64,000 nt of DNA from an uncultured Bacteroidia bacterium (GTDB lineage Bacteria > Bacteroidota > Bacteroidia > Bacteroidales > UBA932): positions 1 to 64,000 of the forward strand of contig CACYWN010000014.1 in assembly GCA_902778105.1 (NCBI GenBank). Reading direction: 5' to 3'. The position numbers and the translations under genes are program-made. Positions 35,368-59,825 of the stretch are shown here, one piece after another; positions within the stretch are counted from its first letter, which is position 1; the number at the start of each line of letters is the position of its first letter. Under the pieces are notes generated by a model. That model was not told where the DNA came from and ran no database searches. It saw only the letters and a list, made by a program, of their open reading frames with translations.

Positions 35368-36702
35368 TTACCATTTTGAAGAGAATACACTGGGGGATAT
35401 GGCCAGGGAGAACCAGCCCCAGCGGGCCTGTTTGCTGTCTCCCTCCTGTTTCAGGCGGGCCATCGTGTCGGTTCCGGACATCTGGGTATAGCCGGCGGAA
35501 AGGGAGATGTCCTTGCTGATGGCATAGCTCAGCTTCAGTTCCACGCTGTGACCCAGCGTGCGGCTCAGGTCTTCCAAGTGGGTGGCCACGGCCAGATAGT
35601 GGTAGGTCAATCCGCAAGTCAGAGAGGAGAAAGGCTTCCCGAAAGCGCCGATGAAAGCATTCTGGAGGCCGGGCGTGAAACCATTGGTGTAAGCGCTCGC
35701 GTAGAAATAGTCCATGATCCCGTAGAATTTGTTCCGGGAACCGTACATTGGCGAGAATCCTCCTTCCACCTCGTGCCGTGGCAGACCGAACTGGCCGCCG
35801 TAGGTCACCGGCACGTAGTCGTCACCGCTGAGGTAGTCGTAACCCAGCTCGAATCCCCATCGTTCACCGGGCTTGACGGTCGCCTTCGCGCTGGCCATCC
35901 AGGCCTTGATCGGCATGGCCTCCTTGTCCGTGTTCACCACTTGGCCGGTCTGCCGGTAATAGGAGGCTTCGAACGTCAGGAATTTGGGATGATAGTTCAG
36001 ATAGCCGCCCGTCATCTGCTGATACTCGATGCGGGCGGGATCGGCCTCGCTGTCCGGCTGTCCGGCCTGCTGGCCGATGTTCATCAGCAGCAGGGACGCC
36101 CCGAGCGGGAACTTGGGAATGTCATAGTGGTACCACACCGTCTGCATGGCCTTGTAATACTGTGCGCCGCCGTCGTAATAGGTGCCGGAATACATGTTGT
36201 CCGCGTTCTGGTTGTAGGCCAGGATGGCGTGGAGCTTGTGACCATGCCCCTCGTAACCCAGGCGCAACACATCGTGGGAATAGGCTGCCGTAGCAAAGTC
36301 ATTGGTGCCGATGATGCGTTCGTCGTCATAGGAAAGCGCCACCCGGCCGGCCTGGGCAAAAAGGCCATGCCGGGAACACAGCTTCACCCAGCCTTCATAG
36401 AGGTTGACACCCTGGTTCCCTTTCATGCCCCAGATCGCCGTGTTCTGAAAGACGGTATGGACCTGCAGGGCCGAGCGCTCGTACCCGACGATCAGGAGGT
36501 TTCGCCCGTAAAGAAAGTGGGACACGTCTTCCGTAGAGGCGGCGGCCCTGGGCATACCGCCGCCGCAGGTTTCTCCGTGCGTGACGGACTGCAGCCGGAT
36601 GCTCAGCTTATTCTCCAGCGTGTCGGTCTGGGCGCAGATGCGACCATGCACCAGAAAGGAGACTGCGGTAAGAAGGATCAGAGGAAAAAAACGTCTGTTC
36701 AT
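35368..36702 (-). CDS. Outer-membrane beta-barrel protein
   Basis: 444 aa, start MNRRFFPLILLTA with signal peptide to about HGRICA. The rest is a series of amphipathic strands rich in Tyr, Gly and Trp (VGYERSALQVHTVFQNTAIW, LRLGYEGHGHKLHAILAYN) ending FSSKW. The pattern resembles alginate-export-type porins of Bacteroidetes, which run as one long barrel; the substrate is unknown. Its gene converges on recQ with a 15-base gap. A TATCTTTA box (36734-36727), one mismatch from -7 consensus, lies upstream. Confidence 0.75.
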   Translation of the reverse strand: MNRRFFPLILLTAVSFLVHGRICAQTDTLENKLSIRLQSVTHGETCGGGMPRAAASTEDVSHFLYGRNLLIVGYERSALQVHTVFQNTAIWGMKGNQGVNLYEGWVKLCSRHGLFAQAGRVALSYDDERIIGTNDFATAAYSHDVLRLGYEGHGHKLHAILAYNQNADNMYSGTYYDGGAQYYKAMQTVWYHYDIPKFPLGASLLLMNIGQQAGQPDSEADPARIEYQQMTGGYLNYHPKFLTFEASYYRQTGQVVNTDKEAMPIKAWMASAKATVKPGERWGFELGYDYLSGDDYVPVTYGGQFGLPRHEVEGGFSPMYGSRNKFYGIMDYFYASAYTNGFTPGLQNAFIGAFGKPFSSLTCGLTYHYLAVATHLEDLSRTLGHSVELKLSYAISKDISLSAGYTQMSGTDTMARLKQEGDSKQARWGWFSLAISPSVFSSKW

Positions 36703-36738: not shown

Positions 36739-36903
36739 ACAAATTGGTTTCCCGCGTATTGCGAGGGAATTCCAGGCATCCTGTTCCTCTGCGCCAGCGC
36801 CAGCAGGGAATCCTCCCACGCCGATGTGATGGAAGACGGCATCTACAACGATGCCAACTACGGGAACGTATACCGGAACACCCTGAAGGAGTTCCTGCAA
36901 TAA
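36739..36903 (+). pseudogene. Fragment of a lost gene, C-terminal end
   Basis: An open frame of 54 codons without a start, ended by TAA at 36901-36903. Codons use G/C at the third position like real genes here. The peptide ends YNDANYGNVYRNTLKEFLQ, which reads like a globular protein's C-terminus. The frame is closed upstream by TAA at 36736-36738. It lies in the otherwise empty gap between the barrel and STAS genes. I do not recognise the family. Confidence 0.45.
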
Positions 36904-36904
36904 C

Positions 36905-37210
36905 TCATTCGAAATCGAACAGGGATACAAATCCGGTCAGATCAAACACTTCGCGGATATCTTCCTGGACATTCCTGAGCACGACGCCGGACCCATTGGC
37001 CTTGCAGTGCTTGAGGATACCCAGCAGGATCCGCAGTCCACTCGAAGAAATATACTCCAGGGTAGCGCAGTCAATGATGACAGGTCTTCCTTCACTGTCA
37101 AGAAGCGGCTGGAGAGCCTGTTCGGTTTCACGGGCGGCAGCCGTGTCCAATTCTCCGGACAAGGTAACGACAAATTTGCCGTCCTGTTCCTGGATCGAGG
37201 TTTTCATCAT
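36905..37210 (-). CDS. STAS-domain anti-sigma factor antagonist
   Basis: 101 aa, a single STAS domain: VVTLSGELDTAAARE, PVIIDCATLEYISSSGLRIL. Ser56, in the SSG position of SpoIIAA/RsbV, is the likely phosphorylation site. Start ATG overlaps the phosphatase stop (ATGATGA). Third gene of the NRPS operon. With the phosphatase and its fused ATPase it forms a complete partner-switching module; no sigma factor is nearby. Confidence 0.9.
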   Translation of the reverse strand: MMKTSIQEQDGKFVVTLSGELDTAAARETEQALQPLLDSEGRPVIIDCATLEYISSSGLRILLGILKHCKANGSGVVLRNVQEDIREVFDLTGFVSLFDFE

Positions 37211-39309
37211 ATTTTTTTAGTTAAAGATAATACATTCTGCCCGTCTCGGCGGGTATAGGATATGGAGTCCATGAGCTTGCGGGTCAGCAGGATGCCCAGT
37301 CCGCCGATCGGCCTGTCCTGGGCGTCCAGGGTCGTATCGGCCTCCAGGACAGTCGTGGGATCGAACGGCTTTCCGGAATCGATCACCGTGAACCGCAACT
37401 GCTTCCGGTCGCTGTCTGCCAGGACCGTGACATCTCCCCGCTCACCGGGAGCATAGGCATAATTGATGACGTTCACGACCGTTTCCTCCAAGGCAAGCCG
37501 CAAGCCGGACGCCGTCTTCCCTTCCAGGTGCAGTGCCCCCAGGAACGCCTTGACAAAGACATTCAGCCGCTCCACCTCATCAATCTCATTGACAAGGGTG
37601 ATCCTTTCGCGCAGAACCTCCCCCGGAGCGAACTGAACGACAAGCAAAGTCAGGTCGTCACTCTGGGGTGCCTGTCCGGCAAATGCGTGCGCGGCCCTGC
37701 TCAGGGAGGACACCAGGGAGGCCGGCGTCCGATCCCCGGACTTGACAAAGGCTTCCAATACCTTCAGCACCCGGTCGCGCCCGAACTGTTTCCGTTGGAC
37801 GTCCTTGGATTCGGTCAGGCCGTCGGTATAGAGGAGGAGCGAGGTCCCGGGAGACAGGGTGCAGCGCTGCCCTTCAAAACGCGTATCAGGGAACACGCCG
37901 AGCGGGAGATTGGCTTTGGCGGGCATCATGGACACTTCGTCCGTGAGGATGAACGGCTTGTCGTGACCGGCTGTCGCATAATCCAGTTCTCCGGAATACA
38001 GGTCCAGACAGCCGACAAAGAAAGTCACGAACATATTGCTGTCATTGCCGCGGCAAAGCTCCCCGTTGAGCAGGGACAGGATCTGGGACGGAAGCTCTTC
38101 CGTCCTGGACACCATCCGGAACAGGGAATGGACAACGGACATCAGCATCGCCGAGGGGACGCCTTTCCCGGCGACATCGCCGATACAGAAGAACAGCTTG
38201 CCGTCGCGGATGAAGAAATCGAAAAGGTCTCCGCCCACTTCCCGGGCGGGCTCCAGGGATCCGTACACGAACGGAGGGAAGGACGTGGGCAGCATTTCCC
38301 GCTGGATGCGTCGGGCGACAGAGAGTTCTCCACTGATGCGGGCCTGTTCTTCCGACGCCTTGTGCAGCTTGGATTCACTGCGGGCGAACCGCTCGATCAT
38401 AAAGGCCAGGATGGCAAGGCCCAGCAGGACCAGCAAGACCTGCTGCCTCCGCATCCTCCAGATACGGGCGAAGATTTCCTGGGTGCGGTACACCTGCACG
38501 ACCTGCCAGTAAGGTTCCCGGACCATTTGCACACTACGGATGGAAATACCCTTCCCGTCAGCGTCCGGCCCTCCCTGACGAATCAATTCCAGCGCAGTTT
38601 CAACATCCTGCCGGGAAGCCCGGCTTTCCGGCGGAGCGGCCACCAGCATCCCTTCCTGCGTAAGCAGGAGGCCGTATGAGGAAGGAAAAGGCTGCCGGGC
38701 ATTCAGCGTGTCACCCAGCCAGGAAACATTCATGTCCAGTCCGCAGATGGCGACGATCCTCCCCCGCCCGTCCAGAACCGGGGTGGCATAGGTAATCAGG
38801 GTTTCCAGCGAATCCGCCGCATCGACATAGGGCTCTGACCAGAATGGCCGCTTGGTATCCATCGCACGACGGAAGAACTCATTCTCCGTATAGTCATGGT
38901 CCTGGCCGGCAAACTGCGACAGGCTGACGGTTCCGTCGACCTTCTTGGCATAAGGTTCGAAAAGGCGGCCCTTGGAAGGGAAGTAATCCGGGACAAACGT
39001 GAGGAAGCCGCCCACCACATGCGGGTTGCCGTCTACCAGGTAGCGCAGGGAGACATAGGAAGAGTCGGGATGGGCCAGATCCTGTCTCACTTTCCAAAGG
39101 TTCTCCTTCATGGTGGCTTCCGTAAGCTCCATCATGTGCCCGACCTCGGCGTCCATCGCACCCAGGACCACCCGGGCACGGGCGTCCATCTCATCCTCCA
39201 TGGCCGTCTTGACACGCTCGTACTGGATGATGGAGATGACCTCCACCAGCAAGGCGGCCAGGACGACGACTCCCAGGCGGAACAACCTTCTCTTTTTGGC
39301 AGAATCCAT
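37207..39309 (-). CDS. RsbU-type phosphatase with sensor and fused RsbW-like ATPase
   Basis: 700 aa. One N-terminal membrane segment (about residues 9-28), a periplasmic Cache-like sensor (about 30-290: FWSEPYVDAADSLETLITYATPV, IVAICGLDMNVSWLGDTL), and a second membrane segment (about 290-310). A PP2C/SpoIIE phosphatase domain follows (about 345-560: AREVGGDLFDFF, CIGDVAGKGVPSAML, LLLYTDGLTESKD, SDDLTLLVV). A C-terminal anti-sigma-type ATPase domain (about 570-700: LALEETVVNVINYAYAPG, VIDSGKPFDP) completes it. Phosphatase and kinase-like domains in one chain would set the state of the STAS protein encoded next. 15 bases after the NRPS gene. Confidence 0.92.
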   Translation of the reverse strand: MDSAKKRRLFRLGVVVLAALLVEVISIIQYERVKTAMEDEMDARARVVLGAMDAEVGHMMELTEATMKENLWKVRQDLAHPDSSYVSLRYLVDGNPHVVGGFLTFVPDYFPSKGRLFEPYAKKVDGTVSLSQFAGQDHDYTENEFFRRAMDTKRPFWSEPYVDAADSLETLITYATPVLDGRGRIVAICGLDMNVSWLGDTLNARQPFPSSYGLLLTQEGMLVAAPPESRASRQDVETALELIRQGGPDADGKGISIRSVQMVREPYWQVVQVYRTQEIFARIWRMRRQQVLLVLLGLAILAFMIERFARSESKLHKASEEQARISGELSVARRIQREMLPTSFPPFVYGSLEPAREVGGDLFDFFIRDGKLFFCIGDVAGKGVPSAMLMSVVHSLFRMVSRTEELPSQILSLLNGELCRGNDSNMFVTFFVGCLDLYSGELDYATAGHDKPFILTDEVSMMPAKANLPLGVFPDTRFEGQRCTLSPGTSLLLYTDGLTESKDVQRKQFGRDRVLKVLEAFVKSGDRTPASLVSSLSRAAHAFAGQAPQSDDLTLLVVQFAPGEVLRERITLVNEIDEVERLNVFVKAFLGALHLEGKTASGLRLALEETVVNVINYAYAPGERGDVTVLADSDRKQLRFTVIDSGKPFDPTTVLEADTTLDAQDRPIGGLGILLTRKLMDSISYTRRDGQNVLSLTKKI

Positions 39310-39324
39310 AAAGGCGAAACGGTG

Positions 39325-42300
39325 CTATTCAAAGAAGCCGAAGGCCGCGATCTGGCGGATCATCTGGGTAATATACTCACTGGAGGTATCACTCCAGCTG
39401 AAGCCCAGCCGGTGCAGCACGTTGCAGGTATAGCGGTTGTCCCGTTCGATCGTCAGGGCACGCTGCCCATGCGCCACGTCCTGATAGGCCAGCATGGCGG
39501 CCAGCAGCTTCGCCTTCTCCGGATCCTGTCCGGCCATGGCCACGGCCTGCTGGAACTCTCCGACCTCCACGAAACGCATGGACCCGCCCTCTTTCTCCAT
39601 CACCGTCAGCACGTCGCCCAGGAGCTCCGTATGGTTGTTGAAGGGCTGGAACACCGTGCAATCCTTCGGCGTGGAGGCGAGGAGCACCACTGCCTTGGCC
39701 GTTTCGTCAATCGGGGACATTTCCGTGGGCTCGTCGTAGCTGTCGACGGGGCAGCAGCCCAGGATGTGGAATACCTTGAGCCGGCCCATGTAGCTGTTGG
39801 AGTTGAAGTTGGCCTGGAACTCTCCGTCGGAGCTGCGCGGGGCGAGGTTGCCCACGCGCATCACCTTGGCGCTGAGTCCATGGTGAGCGACGGCTTCCAG
39901 GATCAACCGTTCGGCCAGGAACTTCGAGTGGATATAGCGGTTGTCCAGGAACTGGCCGAACCAGAGCTTCCTCTCGTCCAGCTGGGGAACCGGGCTGCCG
40001 TCCCCGCGGTCGATCCAGATTTCGCCCACGGAGGTGGTGGAAATGTGCACGAGCCGGGCGTGGTTGCGCAGGCAGAATTCGACGCAGCGCCGCACGCCGC
40101 CGATATTCACGTCCTCAATGTCGGTTCCCTTGGAGAAATGCTTCACGTTGGCCGCCGAATTGAACACCGTGTCGATGGCCGGATACCCTTCCGGGATGGC
40201 CTTGCCGAAATCGGCCGTGACATCACCGCAGACGACGAAGAGGCGCTTGCCGAACAGGTCCGGGAACGACGTCTCGAAATAGTAGAAGAGGAGGTTCTTG
40301 AGCCGACGCTCGGCCGCCTCCTGGCTCTTGGACCGCACCAGGCAGGTAATCGTCGTCGCATCAGAGTCAATGAGTTCGCGCAGCAGATGGATGCCGAGGT
40401 ACCCTGTCGCACCGGTCAGGAGGACATTGCCCAGCGTCTGCCTTTCACCTTCCAGGAAGGTCTTCACGTTGTTCCGCGGCAGGATGGCGTCGATGCCGCT
40501 GTAGTCGAAGCTCTCCACGACGGTGTCGGTCTCCACCGACGGGGCCTCTCCGCTCACGAACTGCGCCAGCAGGCGCGGCGTAGGATGGTCGAAGACCTCG
40601 CCGTAAGCCACGTGCTTGCCGGCCTTGTCGGCCTCGATGATGACCTTGGTCACCATGAGGGACGTGCCGCCCAGCTCAAAGAAGTTGTCCGTGGCGCCCA
40701 CCTTGTCCAGGGAAAGAATGCCGGCAAAGATGTCGCAGAACAGCTTTTCCACCTCGCCCTCCGGGGCAACATACTCACGCTCTTCGACCTGGATCTGCGG
40801 GGCGGGCAGGGCGCGCCGGTTCACCTTCTGGTTCTGGTTCAGCGGAATGGCGTCGATCTGCATCGTCGCGGCAGGGACCATGTACGGCGGCTTGCGCTCC
40901 TTGATGAAGGCGTTCAGCGCCTGTACGTCCACCTTGGAGTCGCTGACGATGTAGGCGGCGATGAACTTTCCGCCGTTGGGGTAATCGAAGGCCTGGACGG
41001 TGGCGTCCTTGATGCCCTTGAATTCCCGGATCACGGCCTCCACTTCCTTGAGTTCGATGCGGAAGCCGCGGATTTTCACCTGGCCGTCGCTGCGGCCTAC
41101 GAACTGGATGTTGCCGTCCGGGAGATAGCGGACCACATCGCCAGTCCGGTAGCAGCGGAGGCCGTTCCAATCAATGAAGGTCTCGGCCGTCTTTTCCGGA
41201 AGGTTCAGGTAGCCGCGGCTCACCTGGGGTCCCGATACCAGCAATTCACCCACGGCGCCGAGCGGGAGGCGGTTCATATCCTTGTCCACGATGTAGAGGC
41301 GCAGGTTGTCCAGCGGCTTGCCGATGGGGGCGTTCTGTTCGAACTCCTTCATCGGATAGGTGGTCGTGAAGATGGTACACTCGGTCGGGCCGTAACCGTT
41401 ATGGAACTGATAATTCGCCGGAGGGGTGAGCGGCAGCACCTTCTCTCCGCCCACGGAGAGGTGGCGGAGGGAGTGGTTCTCGCAGTTCATGGCGAACTGG
41501 CAGCCCACCTGCGTGGTCATGAAGGAATGCGTAACCCCTTCTTCGTCAAAGTATTTATTCAAATCCGGGAGGTTCAGGCGGATGTCGTCGCCGACGATGA
41601 CGACGGCCGCGCCCGTGGTGAGCGCCGGATACATGTCCATCATGCAGGCGTCGAAGCCGAAGGAGGCGTAGGCGGCCACCTTGTCACCCGGCTTGAGCCC
41701 ATAGTAGCGCCGGTACCAGTGGCAGAAGGCCACGAGGTTCCGGTGTTCCAGCTGGCAGCCCTTGGGCTGGCCGGTGGAACCGGACGTGTACAGCAGGATG
41801 AAGAGGTCCTCCGGCCTGGGTTCGCGTCCCGTCGCACCGGGCTCCGGCCGGACATCGGCCAGTTCCCGGGTCAGCAGCACCGGTCCCTGGTAATCGACCT
41901 TCTCCAGCAGTTCCTCCTCGGCGATGAGGAGCTTGGCGGAGGCGTCCTGCATCATGAAGTTCAGACGCTCGGCGGGGTAGCTGGGATCCAGCGGCTGGTA
42001 GGCGCAGCCGGACTTGAGCACGCCCAGGGCGGAGAGCGCCATCCATTCGCTGCGGCCGATGAGGATGGACACCACGGTCTCGGGGCCCTCGCCGGCGATC
42101 TTCCGGACCTCGGCCGCAATGGCATCGGTCTTTTCATCCACCTCCCTGTACGTGAGCCGCACGTCGTGATACACGACGGCCAGGTTGTCCGGCGTTTCGG
42201 CGGCCTGGGCACGGAACAGGGAGACGATGGTCTGCGCGGCGTCATAGTCCACATCCGTGGCGTTGAAGCCGTCCAGCAGGGCCGCCTGCTTCCTGTCCAC

Positions 42301-45300
42301 CAGGGACAGGCTGCGGAGCGGCGCCCCGGCATCGGCGGCAAAGGCGCTGACGGCCTTCACCACACTCCGGGCGAGGCTCTGCATCATGGCCTCGCTGTAC
42401 TTGCCGTTGTCATACTCGATGGCGACGGAGGGTTTGCCCTCCACCTCGGTGATATAGAAGGCGATCTTGAACTTGGGAACGCCCAGTTCCATGGTCTCAT
42501 CAACCTGCACCGGTTTTCCGCCCACGCGGTAGTCGCTGAGGACACCGATCTGGTAGGCGAACATGATGTCGGCCTTGAGGTCGTAGTCGGCGGCGATGCG
42601 GGCGAAAGGATAGTTTTCATGGGCAAGGGTCTGCTCGAAGGTGGCGGCGCTCTCGTGCAGGAACTCCTCCACGCGCTGGCCGCCGATCTTCGCCCGGAGC
42701 GCCAGGGTGTTCACGAACATGCCCATGGTATTGGACACCTTCAGGTTGCTGCGCCCGTTGGAGATGGTGGTGATGCACACGTCGTCACTGCCCGAGAAAC
42801 GGGCCAGGCTGTAGAAGACGGCGCTCAGCAGGACGGCGGAAGGGTTGACGCCCTGGGCCTTGGCCAGCCGCTCGGCGTCTTTCCACACGAGCGGTTCGAA
42901 CACGCGGCCGTTTTCTCCCTGCGGCCGGGGATTGGTCAGGTCCGGCGAGATTTCCGTCACGCTCTCCACATCGGCGAGGCGCTCCTGGAAGAAAGCGGCG
43001 GAGGCGGCGAAGTCTTCGCCCCCTTCGGCAGCCTTCTGCTCGGTGACGAACTGCGCATAGCTGCACATCTCGGGCTCGATTTCCTTGCCGTCCAGGAGGT
43101 CGCAGAGCTCGTGGATGAAAAGGTCGTAGGAATAACCGTCGCACACCAGGTGATGGATGTCGCAGTACAGGTACAGGTCCTTATCGGTCTTGACGATGGC
43201 ATAGCGGAAGAGGCGCTCCTTCGCGAGGTTGAAGGGACGGACGAAGCCCTGGCGGAAGGCGATGGCCTCCTCTTCGGTCATCGTGTACTCCTCCACCTCC
43301 ACCGGCGCCTCGCGGTCGCCCATGACCTGGACGACGCCCGTTTCGTCGGTGACGAACTGGACGAAGAGGGCCGGATGGTTCGCCACGGCTTTCTGCACCG
43401 CCGTGCGCAGGGCATCGACCGTGACGCCCTCGGGAAGACGCAGGCACATCGGCGTGTTGTACAGCGTGGACATCGGGTTCTTCATGCACTCGAAATACAC
43501 GCCCGTCTGGGAGTAGGACAACGGAACGGCGGTGGGAACTTCCGGCGCGGCGGCCGCCTCCCGGGATGCGCCGGGGGCTGCGGCGGCCCCGGCCAGGACG
43601 GTCTGGGCGAGAATCTCATTCTCGATCGTCTGGATGCTTCCGCCGCCCGCTAGGAGCTTGGAATCCAGCTGGACGCCGAAGCGCTTGTAGATCTGCGTGG
43701 CCAGCTTGATCGCCAGGATGGAGGTAAGTCCGGCCATGCGGAGGTCCGTCGTCAGGCCGAAGGCGTCGGTGTTCACGACGGAGGCGACCATGTCCTTGAG
43801 CTGCTGCTCCAGGACATTGAGCGGGGCGTTGGATTCCTCCTCCGCCTCGATGCCGGCGCCGATGACCGGTTCGGGCAGGGCGCGGCGGTTCACCTTCTGG
43901 TTCTGGTTCAGCGGGATGGCGTCGATCTGCATCGTGGCCGCCGGGACCATGTAGGGCGGTTTCCGGTCCATGATGAAGGCGTTCAGGGCCTTGACATCGA
44001 CCTTCTCGTCGGACACGACGTAGGCGGCGATGTACTTGCCGCCGGTCGGATACTCGAAGGCCTGCACCGTGGCGTCCTTGATGAGCGGGAACTCCCGGAT
44101 GACCGCCTCCACTTCCTTGAGTTCGATGCGGAAACCGCGGATCTTCACCTGGCCGTCCTTCCGGCCCACGAATTCGATGTCCCCGTTCCCGCGGTAGCGG
44201 ACGACATCGCCGGTGCGGTACACCCGCTTGCCGTTCCAGTCCACAAAGGTCGCGGCCGTCTTCTCCGGCTGGTTCAGATAGCCGGCGGCCACCTGCGGAC
44301 CAGCGATGATCAATTCGCCCGAGGCGCCCCAGGGAAGCTGCTTCCCGTAGCGGTTGACGATGAACAGCTGCGCGTCGGCATTGGGTTTGCCGATGGGGAT
44401 GTTGGGTTCGTTCCTGTCGACATAATGGCTGCACACGTACACGGTCGTTTCCGTGGGTCCGTAGGCGTTGAGCAGGGCATAGGACGGCGGATCCAGGCTC
44501 ATGAGCTTCTCTCCGCCCGTTCCCAGCCACTTGAGGCCCGGGATGTCGGGGAAATTGAGCGCCAGCTGGGTGGCCATCTGGGTGGTCATGAACACGTGGG
44601 TCATCCCTTCCTTGACCAGATAGTCGTTCAATCCCGCGAGGTCGAAGCGGATGTCGTCCTGGATGATGTAGATGGTCGCACCGGCCCAGACGCAGCTCCA
44701 GAGGTCCATCTGGAAGGCGTCGAAGCCGTAACCGGCATAGGTGGCGTAGCGCGAGCCGGCCTCCAGGCGGATGTTCCGGGTGTTGAAGTCCACGAAGCTG
44801 CGGAAATTCTTCTCGGTGAGCATTACGCCCTTGGGCGTCCCCGTAGTGCCGCTGGTGTACAGGATCACGAGGGCGTCGTCGCCGTCATAGGCCGAGGCGT
44901 CCTCTTTCATGAAGGAAAGCCGCTCCTCGGGATAGCTGCTGTCCAGGGGAAGGGACGTGAGGCCCGCCTTGGCGATGGCGATGGGGGCCAGCACCATCTT
45001 TTCGTCGCGGGGGACGGAGAATCCCACCACGTGTTCGCCGCAGCGGACAGTATAGGACGGGTCGATGCTGTCGGTAAGCCGATCCACCTCCGCGAAGGTG
45101 AGCCGCTTGTCGCCGGCCACGCAGAAAATGTCATTCGGACGCTCGGCGACATGCTGCCGGAAACGCTCCACGAGGGTCGGGAGGGCGTCCGGAGACTGGA
45201 GTTCGGGATTCAGGCCATTCAGCCAACGGACCTGCTCCGGCGTGGCGTATTCCAGTTCCTTCACCTTCTCCGCCGTCATCATCGAACGGAGGACGGCCCC

Positions 45301-46500
45301 GTAACTCTTGGCCAGCTCTTCCATGAACGCATCCGCGTAATCGGCGCTGTCATAGGCGAACTTGAGGGAAAAGACGCCGTCGGTCTCGAACAGTTCGGCG
45401 CAAAGCTTCCAGCCCGGTGCCGGCTGCCGCAGATCCTCGTAATGCACGGGATCCTCCCCGAAGTGCAGGCCGCGCTTGCTGTTCAGGACGGAGCCCTGGT
45501 ACACGAAGGCGACCTGGTTGTTCAGGCCGAGGTCCTTCACGGCATCCTGATAGGCGTAGAACTGCAACTCCTGGGTCTTGTTCATCTGGGCGGAGAGGGC
45601 GGAGAACACTTCACCCAGCGTCAGGTCCCCTCCCGCCTGGACGAACACGGGCAGGGTATGGACCATCATCGTGACGGTGGACAGGGTCCGTCGCTCGCCG
45701 CGGCCGAAATAGACGGTGCACCAGGAGGCCTTGTCCTCGGCGCTGTAGGCCGCGAGGAGCAGGCCCCAGGCCGCCTGCATCAGCGTGCTTTCACCGACAT
45801 CCCACTTGCGCATGATTTCCTGGATGTCTTCCTTGGCGATGTCCAGCGGGAAGTGCGTGTAGTTCATCCGGGACGGCGTACCGGCCTGCGTGCTCTGCGG
45901 CAGCGGCAGGGAATCCGTCTCGACTGCATCGCAGAAGGTCTTCGCATACCAGTCCCGCGCCTCGGCCATCCGGGCCTCGTCCGCGCGCAGCGCCTCTTCC
46001 TCGAAGGCGAGGGTCCCGCCGTCCACCCCTTCGCCGGAGGGTTTCTTCCCGTTGAAGCAGCGCTCGATCTCCCGAAGCATCAGCACGAGGGAGAATCCGT
46101 CGCAAAGGACATGGTGGAAATCGACATAAAGCCAGGATTTCCCTTCGGCCCCCTGATAGACGGCGCAGCGGTACAGCCGCTCCCCGTAGATGTCCATGGC
46201 GGCGCCCAGGGCGGGCTCCACCTCGTCCAGCGTACGGACGGAGATCACCGGAACCGCCTCCTCCTTGGACGGGAAGCTGCCGCTCTCCACACAGGGTGTT
46301 CCCTCCCCGTCCACGACGATGCGGGAGGCCAGGGACGGATGGGCGCAGAGAGCATCATAGACAGCGCTCCGCACTTTTTCCAGGTCCACGTCCGAGGGAA
46401 GGTCGAACAGAACTGGGTTCTGATAATTCGCCGGGGTGTCGGAAGACGTCACACAGGCATAGTAGATGCCCTGCTGGCTTTGGGAGAGGGGAAATCTCAT
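39325..46500 (-). CDS. Two-module NRPS ending in a reductase domain (C-A-T-C-A-T-R)
   Basis: 2391 aa. C1 (residues 1-430, HHVLCDG at 129-135, catalytic His kept); A1 (about 435-850, LYTSGTTGTPKG, NAYGPTETT, RGFRIELKEVEAVI); T1 (MAGLTSILA, near 925); C2 (about 985-1425, HHLVCDG near 1117); A2 (about 1450-1870, LLYTSGSTGQPKG near 1570, NGYGPTECT); T2 (ELGGTSLMV, near 1945); R (about 2020-2391, LLTGATGYLG, catalytic YIHSK). An R domain would release the product as an aldehyde or alcohol. A first C domain before A1 suggests N-acylation or another starter. Both A domains have hydrophobic, unassigned pockets. A1 lacks about 38 residues that A2 has before its ATP loop. No thioesterase is present. 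The PPTase lies divergently next door. Confidence 0.92.
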   Translation of the reverse strand: MRFPLSQSQQGIYYACVTSSDTPANYQNPVLFDLPSDVDLEKVRSAVYDALCAHPSLASRIVVDGEGTPCVESGSFPSKEEAVPVISVRTLDEVEPALGAAMDIYGERLYRCAVYQGAEGKSWLYVDFHHVLCDGFSLVLMLREIERCFNGKKPSGEGVDGGTLAFEEEALRADEARMAEARDWYAKTFCDAVETDSLPLPQSTQAGTPSRMNYTHFPLDIAKEDIQEIMRKWDVGESTLMQAAWGLLLAAYSAEDKASWCTVYFGRGERRTLSTVTMMVHTLPVFVQAGGDLTLGEVFSALSAQMNKTQELQFYAYQDAVKDLGLNNQVAFVYQGSVLNSKRGLHFGEDPVHYEDLRQPAPGWKLCAELFETDGVFSLKFAYDSADYADAFMEELAKSYGAVLRSMMTAEKVKELEYATPEQVRWLNGLNPELQSPDALPTLVERFRQHVAERPNDIFCVAGDKRLTFAEVDRLTDSIDPSYTVRCGEHVVGFSVPRDEKMVLAPIAIAKAGLTSLPLDSSYPEERLSFMKEDASAYDGDDALVILYTSGTTGTPKGVMLTEKNFRSFVDFNTRNIRLEAGSRYATYAGYGFDAFQMDLWSCVWAGATIYIIQDDIRFDLAGLNDYLVKEGMTHVFMTTQMATQLALNFPDIPGLKWLGTGGEKLMSLDPPSYALLNAYGPTETTVYVCSHYVDRNEPNIPIGKPNADAQLFIVNRYGKQLPWGASGELIIAGPQVAAGYLNQPEKTAATFVDWNGKRVYRTGDVVRYRGNGDIEFVGRKDGQVKIRGFRIELKEVEAVIREFPLIKDATVQAFEYPTGGKYIAAYVVSDEKVDVKALNAFIMDRKPPYMVPAATMQIDAIPLNQNQKVNRRALPEPVIGAGIEAEEESNAPLNVLEQQLKDMVASVVNTDAFGLTTDLRMAGLTSILAIKLATQIYKRFGVQLDSKLLAGGGSIQTIENEILAQTVLAGAAAAPGASREAAAAPEVPTAVPLSYSQTGVYFECMKNPMSTLYNTPMCLRLPEGVTVDALRTAVQKAVANHPALFVQFVTDETGVVQVMGDREAPVEVEEYTMTEEEAIAFRQGFVRPFNLAKERLFRYAIVKTDKDLYLYCDIHHLVCDGYSYDLFIHELCDLLDGKEIEPEMCSYAQFVTEQKAAEGGEDFAASAAFFQERLADVESVTEISPDLTNPRPQGENGRVFEPLVWKDAERLAKAQGVNPSAVLLSAVFYSLARFSGSDDVCITTISNGRSNLKVSNTMGMFVNTLALRAKIGGQRVEEFLHESAATFEQTLAHENYPFARIAADYDLKADIMFAYQIGVLSDYRVGGKPVQVDETMELGVPKFKIAFYITEVEGKPSVAIEYDNGKYSEAMMQSLARSVVKAVSAFAADAGAPLRSLSLVDRKQAALLDGFNATDVDYDAAQTIVSLFRAQAAETPDNLAVVYHDVRLTYREVDEKTDAIAAEVRKIAGEGPETVVSILIGRSEWMALSALGVLKSGCAYQPLDPSYPAERLNFMMQDASAKLLIAEEELLEKVDYQGPVLLTRELADVRPEPGATGREPRPEDLFILLYTSGSTGQPKGCQLEHRNLVAFCHWYRRYYGLKPGDKVAAYASFGFDACMMDMYPALTTGAAVVIVGDDIRLNLPDLNKYFDEEGVTHSFMTTQVGCQFAMNCENHSLRHLSVGGEKVLPLTPPANYQFHNGYGPTECTIFTTTYPMKEFEQNAPIGKPLDNLRLYIVDKDMNRLPLGAVGELLVSGPQVSRGYLNLPEKTAETFIDWNGLRCYRTGDVVRYLPDGNIQFVGRSDGQVKIRGFRIELKEVEAVIREFKGIKDATVQAFDYPNGGKFIAAYIVSDSKVDVQALNAFIKERKPPYMVPAATMQIDAIPLNQNQKVNRRALPAPQIQVEEREYVAPEGEVEKLFCDIFAGILSLDKVGATDNFFELGGTSLMVTKVIIEADKAGKHVAYGEVFDHPTPRLLAQFVSGEAPSVETDTVVESFDYSGIDAILPRNNVKTFLEGERQTLGNVLLTGATGYLGIHLLRELIDSDATTITCLVRSKSQEAAERRLKNLLFYYFETSFPDLFGKRLFVVCGDVTADFGKAIPEGYPAIDTVFNSAANVKHFSKGTDIEDVNIGGVRRCVEFCLRNHARLVHISTTSVGEIWIDRGDGSPVPQLDERKLWFGQFLDNRYIHSKFLAERLILEAVAHHGLSAKVMRVGNLAPRSSDGEFQANFNSNSYMGRLKVFHILGCCPVDSYDEPTEMSPIDETAKAVVLLASTPKDCTVFQPFNNHTELLGDVLTVMEKEGGSMRFVEVGEFQQAVAMAGQDPEKAKLLAAMLAYQDVAHGQRALTIERDNRYTCNVLHRLGFSWSDTSSEYITQMIRQIAAFGFFE

Positions 46501-46577
46501 GATTATCAGTGTCTAAAAAAAAGCAGGTTATTCGTTGCGATATATTATGTAAATATGTAAATGTAGAGATAAATTTT

Positions 46578-46585
46578 TATTTTTG
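46578..46585 (+). promoter_or_regulatory. -7 box for the PPTase gene
   Basis: TATTTTTG matches TAnnTTTG. The likely GTG start follows 4 bases later, so the transcript would be leaderless or nearly so. No consensus box is seen on the NRPS side of the 89-bp gap; the closest is TACATTTA (46564-46557, minus strand), one mismatch, so the NRPS may use a weaker or different promoter. Confidence 0.55.
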
Positions 46586-46589
46586 CAAT

Positions 46590-47204
46590 GTGATTTACCT
46601 GAAAGAACACCCGGAAGATCTGAATATCACCCTGGCACTCAACCAAGTAGGCCCGCAGCGTCGCGATACCGCCTTGCGTTATGTGCGCGAAATCGACCGC
46701 AAGCTTTCCCTCGCCGCCTTCCTGCTGCTGATGGAAGGGCTGGAAAAGGAGTACGGCATCACGGAGCCGCCGGTCCTCGCCTTCGGCCCCCATGGGAAAC
46801 CCTTCCTCCGGGATGAGCCCCGGATCCATTTCAACCTGAGCCACTGCCCCTGCGCCGCCCTCTGCGTGATCGGCGATGCCCCGGTGGGCTGCGACATCGA
46901 GCGGGTGGAAACGCCCCTGGACATGGATTTGCTCCATCATTGCTGCAGCCCTGCGGAACAGGCGTCCATCCTGGCTTCAGAACGTCCCGAAATCGCTTTC
47001 TACACGCTCTGGACCCGCAAGGAAGCCTTCCTCAAATGGACCGGAGAAGGGCTCACCGACCACCTTCCGGAACTGCTCTCGTCCCCCGGAGCCGCCTCGG
47101 CGCATTTTGAAAGCTTCCTCTCGCCGGACGCATCCTACGTCTATACCCTCTGCCGGATGACACAACAACCCCTGTTTTCTCCGGGTACTGACCGTACACG
47201 GTGA
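46590..47204 (+). CDS. 4'-phosphopantetheinyl transferase
   Basis: About 204 aa from the GTG at 46590 (VIYLKEHPED). The Sfp/AcpS-type signature is present: HFNLSHCP, GCDIERVE (Mg-binding D and E) and WTRKEAFLKWTG (WxxKEA). It would transfer the phosphopantetheine arm from CoA to the T domains of the NRPS. Divergent from the NRPS and separated by 89 bases. An earlier in-frame GTG at 46509 would overlap the NRPS leader and precede the promoter, so it was rejected. The stop lies inside a terminator stem. Confidence 0.9.
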   Translation: MIYLKEHPEDLNITLALNQVGPQRRDTALRYVREIDRKLSLAAFLLLMEGLEKEYGITEPPVLAFGPHGKPFLRDEPRIHFNLSHCPCAALCVIGDAPVGCDIERVETPLDMDLLHHCCSPAEQASILASERPEIAFYTLWTRKEAFLKWTGEGLTDHLPELLSSPGAASAHFESFLSPDASYVYTLCRMTQQPLFSPGTDRTR

Positions 47205-56875: not shown

Positions 56876-56894
56876 GAAAATGTTAGGTGGACAA

Positions 56895-59825
56895 ATGTAC
56901 TTTGGAGGTGTAAAATCCTTTTTCATCCTGGCCGCAGTCGTGGGCGGTCTGACCCTGTCCCTCCCCTCCCGTGGACAGGAATCTTTCACCGACCGGAGCC
57001 TCACCACGGTCCTGTCCATGGAGGAGGGTCTCCCCTGCAACTACATCGACGACCTCTGCCGCGACAGCGCCGGTTTCCTGTGGATAGCCACCTCGGGCGG
57101 CGGTCTGTGCCGATATGACGGTTACCAGTTCCTCACCTTCAGTTCCACCTCCGCCCGTCCCCTCAAGAGCAATTTCGTCCGCAACGTCTGCGAAGACCGC
57201 TTCCATCGGCTTTGGATCGGTTCGGAAGGCGGACTGGACCTGCTGGACCTGAGGACCCTGGAACTGCTGCCGCTGCCCCACCCCGACCTCGAAGAGGACG
57301 GCGGGAAACTCTGTTCCTTTCTCATGGCCGACGCGGCCGGGCATATCTGGTACAAGACCGGGAAAACCCTGCACCGGATCGGCTTCGACGGAGAAGGGAA
57401 TGTCACGGAGGTCATCTCCTACAGCCACGACGGGCTCTCCCCCGTCAACCTCGTCTTCCAGGACGTGGACGGCGACGGAACGGTCTGGGTGGGGCTGCAA
57501 GGGCGCCTGTACAAGATCCGGGAGACCCGTCCCGGCGTCCTGGACGCGGAGGAGCCCGTTCCGGGTTTCCGGTACGGCGAACGGACCTACCTGTCCGATT
57601 TCCTGCCCACCGGACAGGAACTCTGGATTTCCACGGAGGACGGCCTGTATTTCCTGAACCGTCCCACGGGGCAGTGGAAACATTATACCTATTCGGCCAC
57701 CGACCCGCATTCCCTGACCCAGAATTTCGTCACGAGCCTGGCCCGGACCCCGGCGGGGCAGCTGATTGCGACCACCCTGCACGGCTACAACCTGTACAAC
57801 CCGGTCACGGACGACTTCGCCCGTGTGGGCGGGGACGTCATCAACTGCGTCCGCGTTTTCGGGACAGACGTGCTGCTGGGAACCGAGACGGCCGGACTGC
57901 AGATTCTCTCTCCCAAACAGCTTTCCGTCACGAACCATGCCCACGATACCAAGAGCCCGGAGTCCCTTTCACCCGGAGCCGTCAATGCGGTCCTCGAGGA
58001 CCGGGAGGGACGCCTTTGGGTTGGGACCGTGGAGGGCGGCCTGAATATCCGGAAGCCCGGGAGCCGGGACTTCCGGCATCTCACCCACGAACGGGGCGGG
58101 CTGTGCCACAACAGCGTCAGCGCCCTCTGCGAGCTGCCCGGAGACCGGATGGCGGTGGGCACCTGGGGCGGCGGCATCGACATCGTCTCCCGCAAGGGTT
58201 CCTACCCGGTCCTGAAGCACCTGCAGCCGGGAAATCCCCGGCTGGACTATATCGGATCGCTGGATTATGACGAAAGGAACGGCCTTCTCTGGGTCGGGTC
58301 CAACCTGGGCGTTTACTGCTACGATTCCGAAAAGGATACGTGGTCTCCCGCCCTGGAGGAACAGGCCAGCGGGTGCATCGGTTCCTGCCTGGACAGTCGC
58401 GGAAACCTTTGGATCGGCTGCCGGGAAGGGCTCTATGTATTTGACATTCAAACCAATTCCCGGAAAATGGATGGGACTTTCCCCTTCCGGCACTATCCGT
58501 ACCGGCTGGACGCCCCGGAATCCGGCGTCCGGGAAATGGTGTGCTTCATCATCGAGGCTTCGGACGGGGCCGTCTGGCTCGGGAGCAACGGCGGCGGCGT
58601 GTACAAGGCCGCCCGGGAGGAGGACGGATCCTACACGTTCCAGGCCTATACGAGCCGACAGGGGCTGTCCAATGACCGCGTACGGGGTCTTGCGGAAGAT
58701 GCGGAGGGCAACATCTGGATCAGTACCGAGCATGGGCTGAACCGGTTGAACCCTGCTTCCGGTCTGATCTCCGCCTACTACCGGGAAGACGGTCTGGCCA
58801 GCACCCGATTCCACTGGAACAATGCCTGCTCCGGCGCGGACGGAATGCTTTACTTCGGCCAAGCGGAAGGACTTTCCGTCGTAGACCCCGCCAAGACGGG
58901 CAGTGACTCCTCCGAAAAGCCGTTCCGTTTCACCCGGATCAGCGTGGATGACCGGGATTACCGGGATCCTTTCCTGCAGGAAGTGAGGATCCACGAACGG
59001 AACCGGTCCGTCGACTTTGAATTTGCCCAACTCGCGGCCACCGGTTCCCGGCCGGCCTTCAAATACCGGCTGGAAGGGTTCGACACCGGCTGGAAGACGC
59101 TGCCTCAGGGTCGCCACGAAGCGACTTATTCCTCATTGCCGCATGGGAATTACCGATTCGTCGTACGCACGCAGCAACTCTCCGGTGACTCCTCCGAAGT
59201 CCTTTCCCTGGCCGTGAAGGTCGCTCCTTATTATTATAAGACCTGGTGGTTCCTCCTGCTTTGCGTGGGACTGGCTATCCTTACCGTCTATCTGGTTTCC
59301 ACCTGGCGCACACGCGCCCTCGTCCAACGGCAGGAACTGCTCCAGCGGACGGTGGAGGAACGCACGCGGGAAATCTCCCAGCAGAAAAAGCTCGTGGAGC
59401 AGAAGGCCGAGGAACTGGACCGGCAGAACCGCATCCTCCTCCGCCAGAACGAGGAACTGGCCGGGCACCGGCTCCTGTCCGCCCAGGAGCCCCAGCAGGA
59501 AGACCCGTTTGCGACAAAGGTCATCGACACCCTGCGGGCGCAGTACAAGAAGCCCGACCTGGACGTCACCGCCTTCTGCGCCGCCATGGGCATGAGCAAG
59601 ACCCTCCTGAACAAACGCATCCAGGAGACCTTCGGCCAGCCCATCGCCCAGTTCATCCGGACCTACCGTCTGTCCGTCGCCCGGGAGATGCTCCTGAACA
59701 ACCGGGGCAGCAAACTCATGAACATTTCCGAGATCGCCTACGAGGTCGGATTCAACGACCCCAAGTATTTCAGCCGCTGTTTTACGAAAGAATTCGGCGT
59801 CTCCCCCAGTTCCTTCCCTGAATAG
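56895..59825 (+). CDS. Membrane sensor with propeller domain fused directly to AraC
   Basis: 976 aa from MYFGGVKSFF. Signal/anchor at the N-terminus, then Reg_prop repeats forming two seven-bladed propellers (DSAGFLWIATSGGGLCRYD, DSRGNLWIGCREGLYVFD, DAEGNIWISTEHGLNRL). A Y_Y_Y domain (about 690-770), a transmembrane helix (about 778-803), a coiled coil (EERTREISQQKKLVEQKAEE) and a C-terminal AraC helix-turn-helix (about 875-975: NISEIAYEVGFNDPKYFSRC) follow. Unlike hybrid two-component systems it has no kinase, histidine or receiver domain between. It lies between the GH51 gene and the SusC locus and probably controls them upon oligosaccharide binding. Confidence 0.9.
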   Translation: MYFGGVKSFFILAAVVGGLTLSLPSRGQESFTDRSLTTVLSMEEGLPCNYIDDLCRDSAGFLWIATSGGGLCRYDGYQFLTFSSTSARPLKSNFVRNVCEDRFHRLWIGSEGGLDLLDLRTLELLPLPHPDLEEDGGKLCSFLMADAAGHIWYKTGKTLHRIGFDGEGNVTEVISYSHDGLSPVNLVFQDVDGDGTVWVGLQGRLYKIRETRPGVLDAEEPVPGFRYGERTYLSDFLPTGQELWISTEDGLYFLNRPTGQWKHYTYSATDPHSLTQNFVTSLARTPAGQLIATTLHGYNLYNPVTDDFARVGGDVINCVRVFGTDVLLGTETAGLQILSPKQLSVTNHAHDTKSPESLSPGAVNAVLEDREGRLWVGTVEGGLNIRKPGSRDFRHLTHERGGLCHNSVSALCELPGDRMAVGTWGGGIDIVSRKGSYPVLKHLQPGNPRLDYIGSLDYDERNGLLWVGSNLGVYCYDSEKDTWSPALEEQASGCIGSCLDSRGNLWIGCREGLYVFDIQTNSRKMDGTFPFRHYPYRLDAPESGVREMVCFIIEASDGAVWLGSNGGGVYKAAREEDGSYTFQAYTSRQGLSNDRVRGLAEDAEGNIWISTEHGLNRLNPASGLISAYYREDGLASTRFHWNNACSGADGMLYFGQAEGLSVVDPAKTGSDSSEKPFRFTRISVDDRDYRDPFLQEVRIHERNRSVDFEFAQLAATGSRPAFKYRLEGFDTGWKTLPQGRHEATYSSLPHGNYRFVVRTQQLSGDSSEVLSLAVKVAPYYYKTWWFLLLCVGLAILTVYLVSTWRTRALVQRQELLQRTVEERTREISQQKKLVEQKAEELDRQNRILLRQNEELAGHRLLSAQEPQQEDPFATKVIDTLRAQYKKPDLDVTAFCAAMGMSKTLLNKRIQETFGQPIAQFIRTYRLSVAREMLLNNRGSKLMNISEIAYEVGFNDPKYFSRCFTKEFGVSPSSFPE

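What the first reader, a model, noticed from the sequence alone, without database searches (positions are those of the whole stretch)
36905..47204. NRPS making a probable N-capped dipeptide aldehyde, in one operon with a complete partner-switch regulator
The 2391-aa enzyme has C-A-T-C-A-T-R order with intact HHxxxDG motifs, two T serines and a reductase YxxxK site. The next two genes encode an RsbU-type phosphatase fused to a Cache sensor and an RsbW-like ATPase, and a STAS protein; gaps are 15 bases and a 4-base overlap. A PPTase is divergent. Terminal-reductase NRPSs are known from gut Clostridia; this layout in a Bacteroidales genome with its own regulator, and with no transporter in sight, is new to me.
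Basis: partly seen in the sequence, partly recalled or inferred. Interest (0 to 1): 0.85.

Follow-up and report, generated by a model that had tools for sequence, protein, structure and literature searches.

The report
Partner-switch-linked reductase peptide synthetase module
A gut bacterium carries an enzyme that probably makes a small reactive peptide aldehyde, next to its own on/off signalling switch and an outer-membrane channel, and similar combinations recur in related gut bacteria, so the switch probably controls making or exporting this compound.

Summary
The genes are as described: a 2391-aa C-A-T-C-A-T-R NRPS, a Cache-PP2C-HATPase protein and a STAS protein in one tight operon, with a PPTase divergent. 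The linkage holds up. In 299 same-family genomes this reductase domain occurs at 45 places; 27 have a PP2C and/or STAS gene within 10 kb, mostly adjacent. Of the 18 others, 7 belong to one genus, 5 are cut off by a contig end and 6 are exceptions.

First, a 444-aa outer-membrane barrel gene lies downstream (35368-36702), predicted to fold like the alginate exporter AlgE. Homologues occur in 30 of 299 genomes; 22 of those 30 have the reductase NRPS (about 4 expected). Second, some relatives carry a MATE exporter nearby (11 of 31 linked named loci), and a few a MATE fused to an RsbW-like kinase domain. So 'no transporter' does not hold for the module.

The layout is not wholly new: Leahy 2010 reported an NRPS with serine phosphatases, an anti-sigma-factor antagonist and a MatE gene in the rumen archaeon Methanobrevibacter ruminantium.

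The product is probably a dipeptide aldehyde. The N-cap and the switch's target are unproven. I suggest the switch acts on export or enzyme activity rather than through a sigma factor.

The parts
39325..46500 (-). NRPS, C-A-T-C-A-T-R, 2391 aa (C1 ~aa 1-400, A1 ~440-880, T1 S927, C2 ~985-1410, A2 ~1425-1885, T2 S1947, R ~2010-2391)
   Evidence: Pfam, motifs, domain HMM map; R-domain best solved relative 6vtj, E 1.7e-68
37207..39309 (-). Cache(PDC)-SpoIIE(PP2C)-HATPase_c_2 protein, 700 aa: membrane sensor, phosphatase and RsbW-like kinase in one chain
   Evidence: Pfam; alignment A1; PP2C aspartates and HATPase boxes conserved; PDB sequence hits Rv1364c and RsbW
36905..37210 (-). STAS anti-sigma-factor-antagonist-like protein, 101 aa, candidate phosphoserine S56
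   Evidence: Pfam; PDB hits TM1442, an anti-sigma-B antagonist, SpoIIAA; Ser at this column in all 107 distinct STAS sequences examined
35368..36702 (-).
   Evidence: Pfam (below cut-off for the window copy, above it for L039, and for L097); AlphaFold2 model pLDDT 79.5; Foldseek best hits AlgE, E 9e-15; co-occurrence
46509..47204 (+). Sfp-type PPTase, divergent from the NRPS; exact start uncertain
   Evidence: Pfam ACPS; homologues divergent from the NRPS in L034, L088, L265, L269, L270 and L303
46501..46589 (.). Short divergent stretch between NRPS start and PPTase; presumed promoters (extent depends on the PPTase start)
   Evidence: Position only; the promoter scan found no excess of sigma-70-like sites

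Best explanation
This is a regulated biosynthetic module. The PPTase activates a two-module NRPS. The NRPS joins an optional N-terminal acyl group, a first residue that varies between relatives and a second residue that is the same in most of them. The terminal reductase then releases the peptide as an aldehyde. A Cache sensor, presumably periplasmic, drives the attached PP2C phosphatase to dephosphorylate the STAS protein, and the attached HATPase kinase rephosphorylates it. The STAS phosphorylation state then sets output: either making the enzyme or moving the product out through an inner-membrane MATE carrier (encoded nearby in some relatives) and the AlgE-like outer-membrane channel. Shown by sequence: gene content, intact motifs, conserved linkage, predicted barrel fold. 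Inferred: ligand, direction of the switch, target, exact product, export role of the barrel.
For: Reductase-domain places in the family sample: 27 of 45 have PP2C or STAS within 10 kb. The script scored 44 places and found PP2C at 25, STAS at 23, either at 26; place G378 was missed because I gave a wrong position, and its map (L269) shows both. The nearest PP2C ORF lies within 100 bases of the NRPS ORF in 22 of the 25 scored. SpoIIE domains are scarce in this family, 80 matches in 99 genomes, so about 1-4% of places would have one by chance. The linkage survives different gene orders: downstream co-directional (window, L265, L267, L269), upstream co-directional (L096, L116, L117), divergent (L040, L045, L275, L278-L283). 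The PP2C group closest to the window's (over 585 bits, a cut I chose at a gap after seeing the scores) is in 13 of 299 genomes, 12 with the reductase NRPS. Barrel homologues: 30 of 299 genomes, 22 with the NRPS, expected 4.1. R-domain S-T, Y and K are kept in 81 of 81 distinct R domains; HHxxxDG in 48 of 50 C1 and 50 of 50 C2. PP2C aspartates are kept in 123 of 123, STAS Ser in 107 of 107, kinase N-box Asn in 106 of 107 (these sets include copies not linked to NRPSs). The last A domain reads DAMFSGGIF in 44 of 74 distinct proteins while A1 varies.
Against: 18 of 45 places show no PP2C/STAS. Seven are one genus (g22), where the NRPS mostly has only a PPTase, and six others are exceptions; extending the flanks to about 10 kb where the contig allows found nothing more. 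In close relatives G095, G374 and G378 the barrel lies on another contig (L262, L261, L268), and in G095 a tRNA-Leu, not a STAS gene, follows the PP2C. Eight genomes have the barrel without the NRPS. Only 4 of 44 scored places have the barrel, and 4 of 44 a MATE, within 10 kb. No MATE was found in the window. The MATE-kinase fusions in L049, L117 and L193 sit beside three-module, not two-module, NRPSs. Fisher tests treat related genomes as independent.
Confidence: 0.6

Rival explanations
1. Classical transcriptional partner switch: the HATPase (or another RsbW-like protein) sequesters a sigma factor, STAS frees it, and the sigma factor turns on the NRPS operon.
For: All three classical proteins are present with intact motifs; the genome has 13 sigma-region-2 matches, mostly in ECF-sized frames.
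Against: Only one protein of the genome (84% complete) matches sigma region 3, in a 286-aa frame that looks like the primary sigma factor, so no SigB/SigF-type partner was found. The similar neighbourhood in a methanogen cannot use a bacterial sigma factor (general knowledge). MATE-kinase fusions point to a non-sigma target.
Confidence: 0.35
2. The switch and barrel are a reception system: the Cache domain senses the exported peptide aldehyde (or its target) and the barrel takes compounds in, making an autoinducer-like circuit.
For: PP2C-STAS-barrel units exist apart from the NRPS (L099, L103, L257, L258, L259), and most genomes with the barrel have the NRPS even when it lies elsewhere.
Against: Nothing shows that Cache binds the product; AlgE, the closest fold, is an exporter.
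Confidence: 0.2
3. Chance neighbours: PP2C-STAS pairs are common regulators and happened to lie next to the NRPS.
For: PP2C-STAS pairs also occur without an NRPS (27 of 78 distinct named PP2Cs clearly unlinked; 25 of those 27 have STAS).
Against: Linked and unlinked PP2Cs separate on a tree (11 changes against a shuffled mean of 25, minimum 21 of 300), the linkage recurs in different orientations, and chance expectation is about 1-4% per place.
Confidence: 0.03
4. The released product is an alcohol (four-electron reduction) or a cyclised pyrazinone/dihydropyrazinone rather than a stable capped aldehyde.
For: Terminal R domains can do either (general knowledge); AusA's product cyclises (PMC8210680, passages read). 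Thirteen distinct relatives lack C1 and would leave a free amine able to cyclise.
Against: The window enzyme has an intact C1 motif, consistent with N-capping.
Confidence: 0.3

Closest known systems
Methanobrevibacter ruminantium M1 mru0068 NRPS neighbourhood (Leahy 2010, PMC2812497; passages read)
   Same: Two-module NRPS starting with a C domain, a terminal thioester-reductase domain (its Figure S8 legend; the main text says thioesterase), two serine phosphatases, an anti-sigma-factor antagonist and a MatE gene; a rumen organism. The best solved relative of the window's R domain is 6vtj, an NRPS; that it comes from M. ruminantium is recalled.
   Different: Archaeon; reported as one genome's adjacency without a test of conservation. 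Here it is Bacteroidales, with phosphatase and kinase fused, and with an AlgE-like outer-membrane barrel.
AusA/PznA of Staphylococcus aureus (PMC8210680, passages read)
   Same: Dimodular, terminal reductase, release of a dipeptide aldehyde; R domain similar in sequence (4f6c/4f6l, E 7e-33 and 1e-32); partner PPTase (recalled).
   Different: AusA has no N-terminal C domain (recalled) and I know of no linked partner switch; here C1 is present.
Gut dipeptide-aldehyde NRPSs (Guo 2017; ruminopeptin), known here only through reviews (passages of PMC12327764, and PMC8210680)
   Same: Gut bacteria, dipeptide aldehydes, N-acyl tail in some.
   Different: Guo 2017 is not held, so whether its clusters carry PP2C/STAS genes could not be checked.
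RsbU-RsbW-RsbV / SpoIIE-SpoIIAB-SpoIIAA partner switches; fused phosphatase-kinase proteins such as Rv1364c (its fusion is recalled)
   Same: Same domains and catalytic motifs; PDB hits to Rv1364c, RsbW, an anti-sigma-B antagonist and SpoIIAA.
   Different: No SigB/SigF-like sigma factor found in the genome; cognate to an NRPS.
AlgE alginate export porin
   Same: Predicted barrel of about 18 strands; the top 17 Foldseek hits are AlgE, TM-score about 0.6.
   Different: 11-13% identity; tied to NRPS and PP2C-STAS genes. I did not search for alginate genes.

Membership tests
Terminal-reductase dimodular NRPS (AusA / gut peptide-aldehyde class) | Two C/A/T modules ending in a thioester reductase | tested here: met
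Terminal-reductase dimodular NRPS (AusA / gut peptide-aldehyde class) | Intact R-domain cofactor and catalytic residues | tested here: met
   GATGYLG, T2155, Y2189, K2193; S-T, Y, K in 81 of 81 distinct R domains; aligns to 6vtj and AusA R
Terminal-reductase dimodular NRPS (AusA / gut peptide-aldehyde class) | Product is a peptide aldehyde | not testable with these tools
   needs LC-MS or in vitro reconstitution
N-acylating (capped) NRPS | Active starter C domain | tested here: inconclusive
   HHVLCDG intact and HHxxxDG in 48 of 50 C1; C-domain subtype not determined
RsbU/RsbV/RsbW-type partner switch | PP2C phosphatase with metal-site aspartates | tested here: met
RsbU/RsbV/RsbW-type partner switch | GHKL kinase with N, G1, G2 boxes | tested here: met
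RsbU/RsbV/RsbW-type partner switch | STAS antagonist with phosphorylatable Ser | tested here: met
   S56 aligns with the Ser of YMDSTG in an anti-sigma-B antagonist; 107 of 107; phosphorylation itself not tested
RsbU/RsbV/RsbW-type partner switch | Sigma factor (SigB/SigF type) as target | tested here: inconclusive
   one sigma-region-3 match only, probably the primary sigma; genome 84% complete; ECF targets not excluded
AlgE-type outer-membrane exporter | 18-strand barrel of PF13372 | tested here: inconclusive
   predicted fold agrees; Pfam score of the window copy is under the cut-off (23.7 vs 25.2), while L039 and L097 are over it
AlgE-type outer-membrane exporter | Exports a substrate of the linked pathway | not tested
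   inference from co-occurrence only

The most novel reading that the evidence does not exclude
A sigma-free partner switch that acts directly on natural-product output: the STAS/HATPase pair gates a MATE exporter (in some relatives the exporter itself carries the RsbW-like kinase domain) and perhaps the NRPS, rather than transcription. The same logic would then be shared by gut Bacteroidales and a rumen methanogen, which has no sigma factors, with an AlgE-like channel as the Gram-negative outer-membrane exit.
Probability: 0.4. Interest if true: 0.82.

Novelty: new variant of a known kind. Interest (0 to 1): 0.63.

Why it matters
Peptide aldehydes from gut bacteria are protease inhibitors of interest, and how their synthesis is switched on is little known to me. 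A conserved sensor, phosphatase, kinase, STAS set and channel gives a concrete control circuit to test, might explain why such pathways are silent in culture, and suggests that partner switching can control export or enzyme activity without a sigma factor. The MATE-kinase fusions make that directly testable.

Tried and rejected
Chance linkage was tested and rejected. The short plus-strand reading frame between STAS and the barrel (36745-36904) was examined as a possible gene remnant and dropped: apart from loci of the same stretch, DNA similarity was found only in L098 (68 bases), and at protein level in L098 and, weakly (E 0.27), L260. A first count of HHxxxDG motifs used a pattern that was too strict and gave too few; it was redone with a looser pattern. 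Adenylation specificity could not be named: the codes were read by anchors to recalled GrsA positions and matched to no database; DAMFSGGIF only resembles recalled codes for branched-chain residues. The promoter/terminator scan gave no more sites than shuffles. PDB sequence search found no relative of the barrel or of the MATE-fused kinase domain. Five papers were opened for passages; the paper searches were otherwise seen as listings only. In this library (open-licence PMC papers), searches for 'partner-switching' + NRPS + STAS and related terms found no paper on this linkage except Leahy 2010; the MATE-kinase fusion was not searched for in print.

Limits of the counts: the named set (78 distinct PP2C domains from 80 loci: 31 linked, 27 unlinked, 20 undecidable) was collected with a seed of NRPS-linked PP2Cs, so it is not an unbiased rate. 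The profile HMMs were built from linked loci. The family sample of 299 genomes was drawn evenly from a larger group and many are incomplete. The lists of places and genomes used were typed by hand (and 30 for the MATE list). Linkage was scored on flanks often shorter than 10 kb on one side; for 10 of the 18 unlinked places I fetched more flank afterwards and found no PP2C or STAS there.
Full report
Observation. The PPTase is divergent; its start codon is uncertain.

Outer-membrane protein. Pfam places the 444-aa protein near PF13372, alginate export, just under the cut-off (23.7 vs 25.2 bits), while its homologues in L039 and L097 score above it. An AlphaFold2 model from an alignment of 35 sequences (pLDDT 79.5, pTM 0.76) is a barrel of about 18 strands, and the top 17 Foldseek hits are AlgE structures, best E 9e-15, TM-score about 0.6, 11-13% identity.

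Where it occurs. The nearest named loci are metagenome-assembled Bacteroidales such as RUG436 and RGIG8438 (water deer abomasum); most of the 80 titles that name a source name a ruminant gut compartment, and at least one is from horse faeces (that RUG isolates are from rumen is recalled). In the window's genus, 24 of 101 genomes have a match to the NRPS at E<=1e-50. In a 299-genome family sample, 41 genomes have the reductase domain at E<=1e-40, at 45 places. In 247 genomes drawn across the order, 4 have it, the window's own included, so outside the family it is rare at this threshold.

Linkage. In 22 of the 25 scored places with a PP2C, its ORF lies within 100 bases of the NRPS ORF. Of the 18 without, 7 belong to genus g22 (G140, G157, G171, G183, G194, G234, G252; some cut by a contig end), 5 others are cut by a contig end at the NRPS itself (G238, G331, G358, G375, G258 second copy), and 6 are exceptions (G336 and G295 first copies, G023, G308, G166, G376). 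I then extended the flanks of 10 of the 18 to about 10 kb where the contig allowed (G336, G295, G023, G166, G376, G140, G183, G194, G157, G234) and found no PP2C or STAS. G023 and G308 carry PP2C-STAS-barrel units on another contig (L258, L257), and both their NRPS contigs end within 5 kb on one side. G336 and G295 each have a second NRPS copy about 49 kb away with a PP2C next to it (L273, L289). PP2C domains are scarce in this family, 80 matches in 99 genomes, giving a chance of about 1-4% per place.

Orientation and type vary. The regulator lies downstream on the same strand (window, L265, L267, L269), upstream on the same strand (L096, L116, L117), or divergent (L040, L045, L275, L278-L283). 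The sensor part varies too: Cache-PP2C-HATPase, Cache-PP2C without kinase, or a short PP2C of about 430-460 aa with an unassigned N-terminus. On a tree of 124 distinct PP2C domains, linked and unlinked copies need 11 changes against a mean of 25 in 300 shuffles (minimum 21), so there are NRPS-associated PP2C groups rather than random neighbours. The window genome's own second PP2C-STAS pair (L308) falls with the unlinked group.

Co-occurrence of the barrel. It is in 30 of 299 genomes at E<=1e-20; 22 of these have the reductase NRPS, expected 4.1; 8 do not. In the named set the barrel lies within 10 kb in 19 of 31 linked PP2C loci and 3 of 27 unlinked. Against this, it is within 10 kb of only 4 of 44 scored reductase-domain places in the family sample, and in the close relatives G095, G374 and G378 it sits on another contig. 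In G095 a tRNA-Leu follows the PP2C where STAS would be expected. Co-occurrence is therefore firmer than physical linkage.

Transporters. MATE genes lie within 10 kb in 11 of 31 linked named loci and 1 of 27 unlinked, and at 4 of 44 scored places of the family sample. In L049, L117, L193/L304 and L195/L305, among others, the MATE carries a C-terminal HATPase_c_2 domain with conserved E, N and DDG motifs. The AlphaFold2 model of the L049 protein (pLDDT 83.6) matches MATE structures over about 450 alignment columns; the kinase-like part was assigned by Pfam and my HMM, not by the fold search. In L049 and L117 the order is PP2C-STAS-(MATE-HATPase)-NRPS, and there the NRPS has three modules.

Chemistry. 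R-domain S-T, Y and K are invariant in 81 distinct R domains. The closest solved R domain is 6vtj (E 1.7e-68), then AusA. HHxxxDG is intact in 48 of 50 C1 and 50 of 50 C2; 13 distinct relatives with a complete N-terminus lack C1. The last A domain reads DAMFSGGIF in 44 of 74 distinct two-T-domain proteins and DAQSRGCVA in 15 (5 could not be read); the first A domain has more than 30 different codes. In the group with DAQSRGCVA last, mostly those with upstream PP2C-STAS-barrel, the first A domain usually has DAMFSGGIF or a near variant. I read this as a family of products that share one residue. Amino-acid identity is not assigned. In the window and its nearest relatives the HMM splits A1 in two; by eye, A1 lacks about 45 residues between core motifs A2 and A3.

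Regulation. PP2C aspartates, kinase boxes and the STAS Ser are conserved, so the switch looks active. Its target is unknown. Only one protein of the genome matches sigma region 3 and 13 places match region 2, so no SigB/SigF-type partner was found, though the assembly is 84% complete. The MATE-kinase fusions, together with a similar gene set in an archaeon, make a direct, sigma-free target attractive; this is inference.

Prior work. Leahy 2010 described the NRPS, serine phosphatases, anti-sigma-factor antagonist and MatE set in Methanobrevibacter ruminantium (passages). A rumen survey counted 5,346 NRPS clusters, 934 of them in Bacteroidaceae; the terms 'thioester reductase', 'aldehyde' and 'sigma factor' do not occur in its main text (PMC8241843, passages). 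So the kind is known. What I add is the conservation across related Bacteroidales, the barrel, the MATE-kinase fusion and the specificity pattern.

Noticed in passing
L049:3246-5006, L117:12397-14187, L050:17059-18837, L192, L194, L196 and others: MATE transporters fused to a C-terminal RsbW-like HATPase domain; 19 such ORFs listed (two pairs, L193/L304 and L195/L305, are the same gene fetched twice), some beside NRPSs, some not.
   Followed up: partly
window 39325-46500, A1 domain (aa ~440-880): A1 lacks about 45 residues between core motifs A2 and A3 compared with the second A domain of the same protein (by eye); the HMM split of A1 recurs in close relatives.
   Followed up: no
L284, L285, L293, L294, L295, L298: Genus g22 has a C-A-T-C-A-T-R NRPS of about 2446 aa, mostly with an adjacent PPTase, without PP2C/STAS in the flanks examined, and with a different last code (DADSxGGVC).
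   Followed up: partly
L264: Two reductase NRPSs in tandem, one with and one without the first C domain, next to a divergent PP2C-STAS pair.
   Followed up: no
L274 and L256 (genome G190): A STAS gene sits by the NRPS while the PP2C sits by the barrel gene on another contig: a split module.
   Followed up: no
window 56880-59825: 981-aa protein with two-component regulator propeller repeats and an AraC-type HTH, next to a gene for an alpha-L-arabinofuranosidase; looks like a polysaccharide-use regulator.
   Followed up: no
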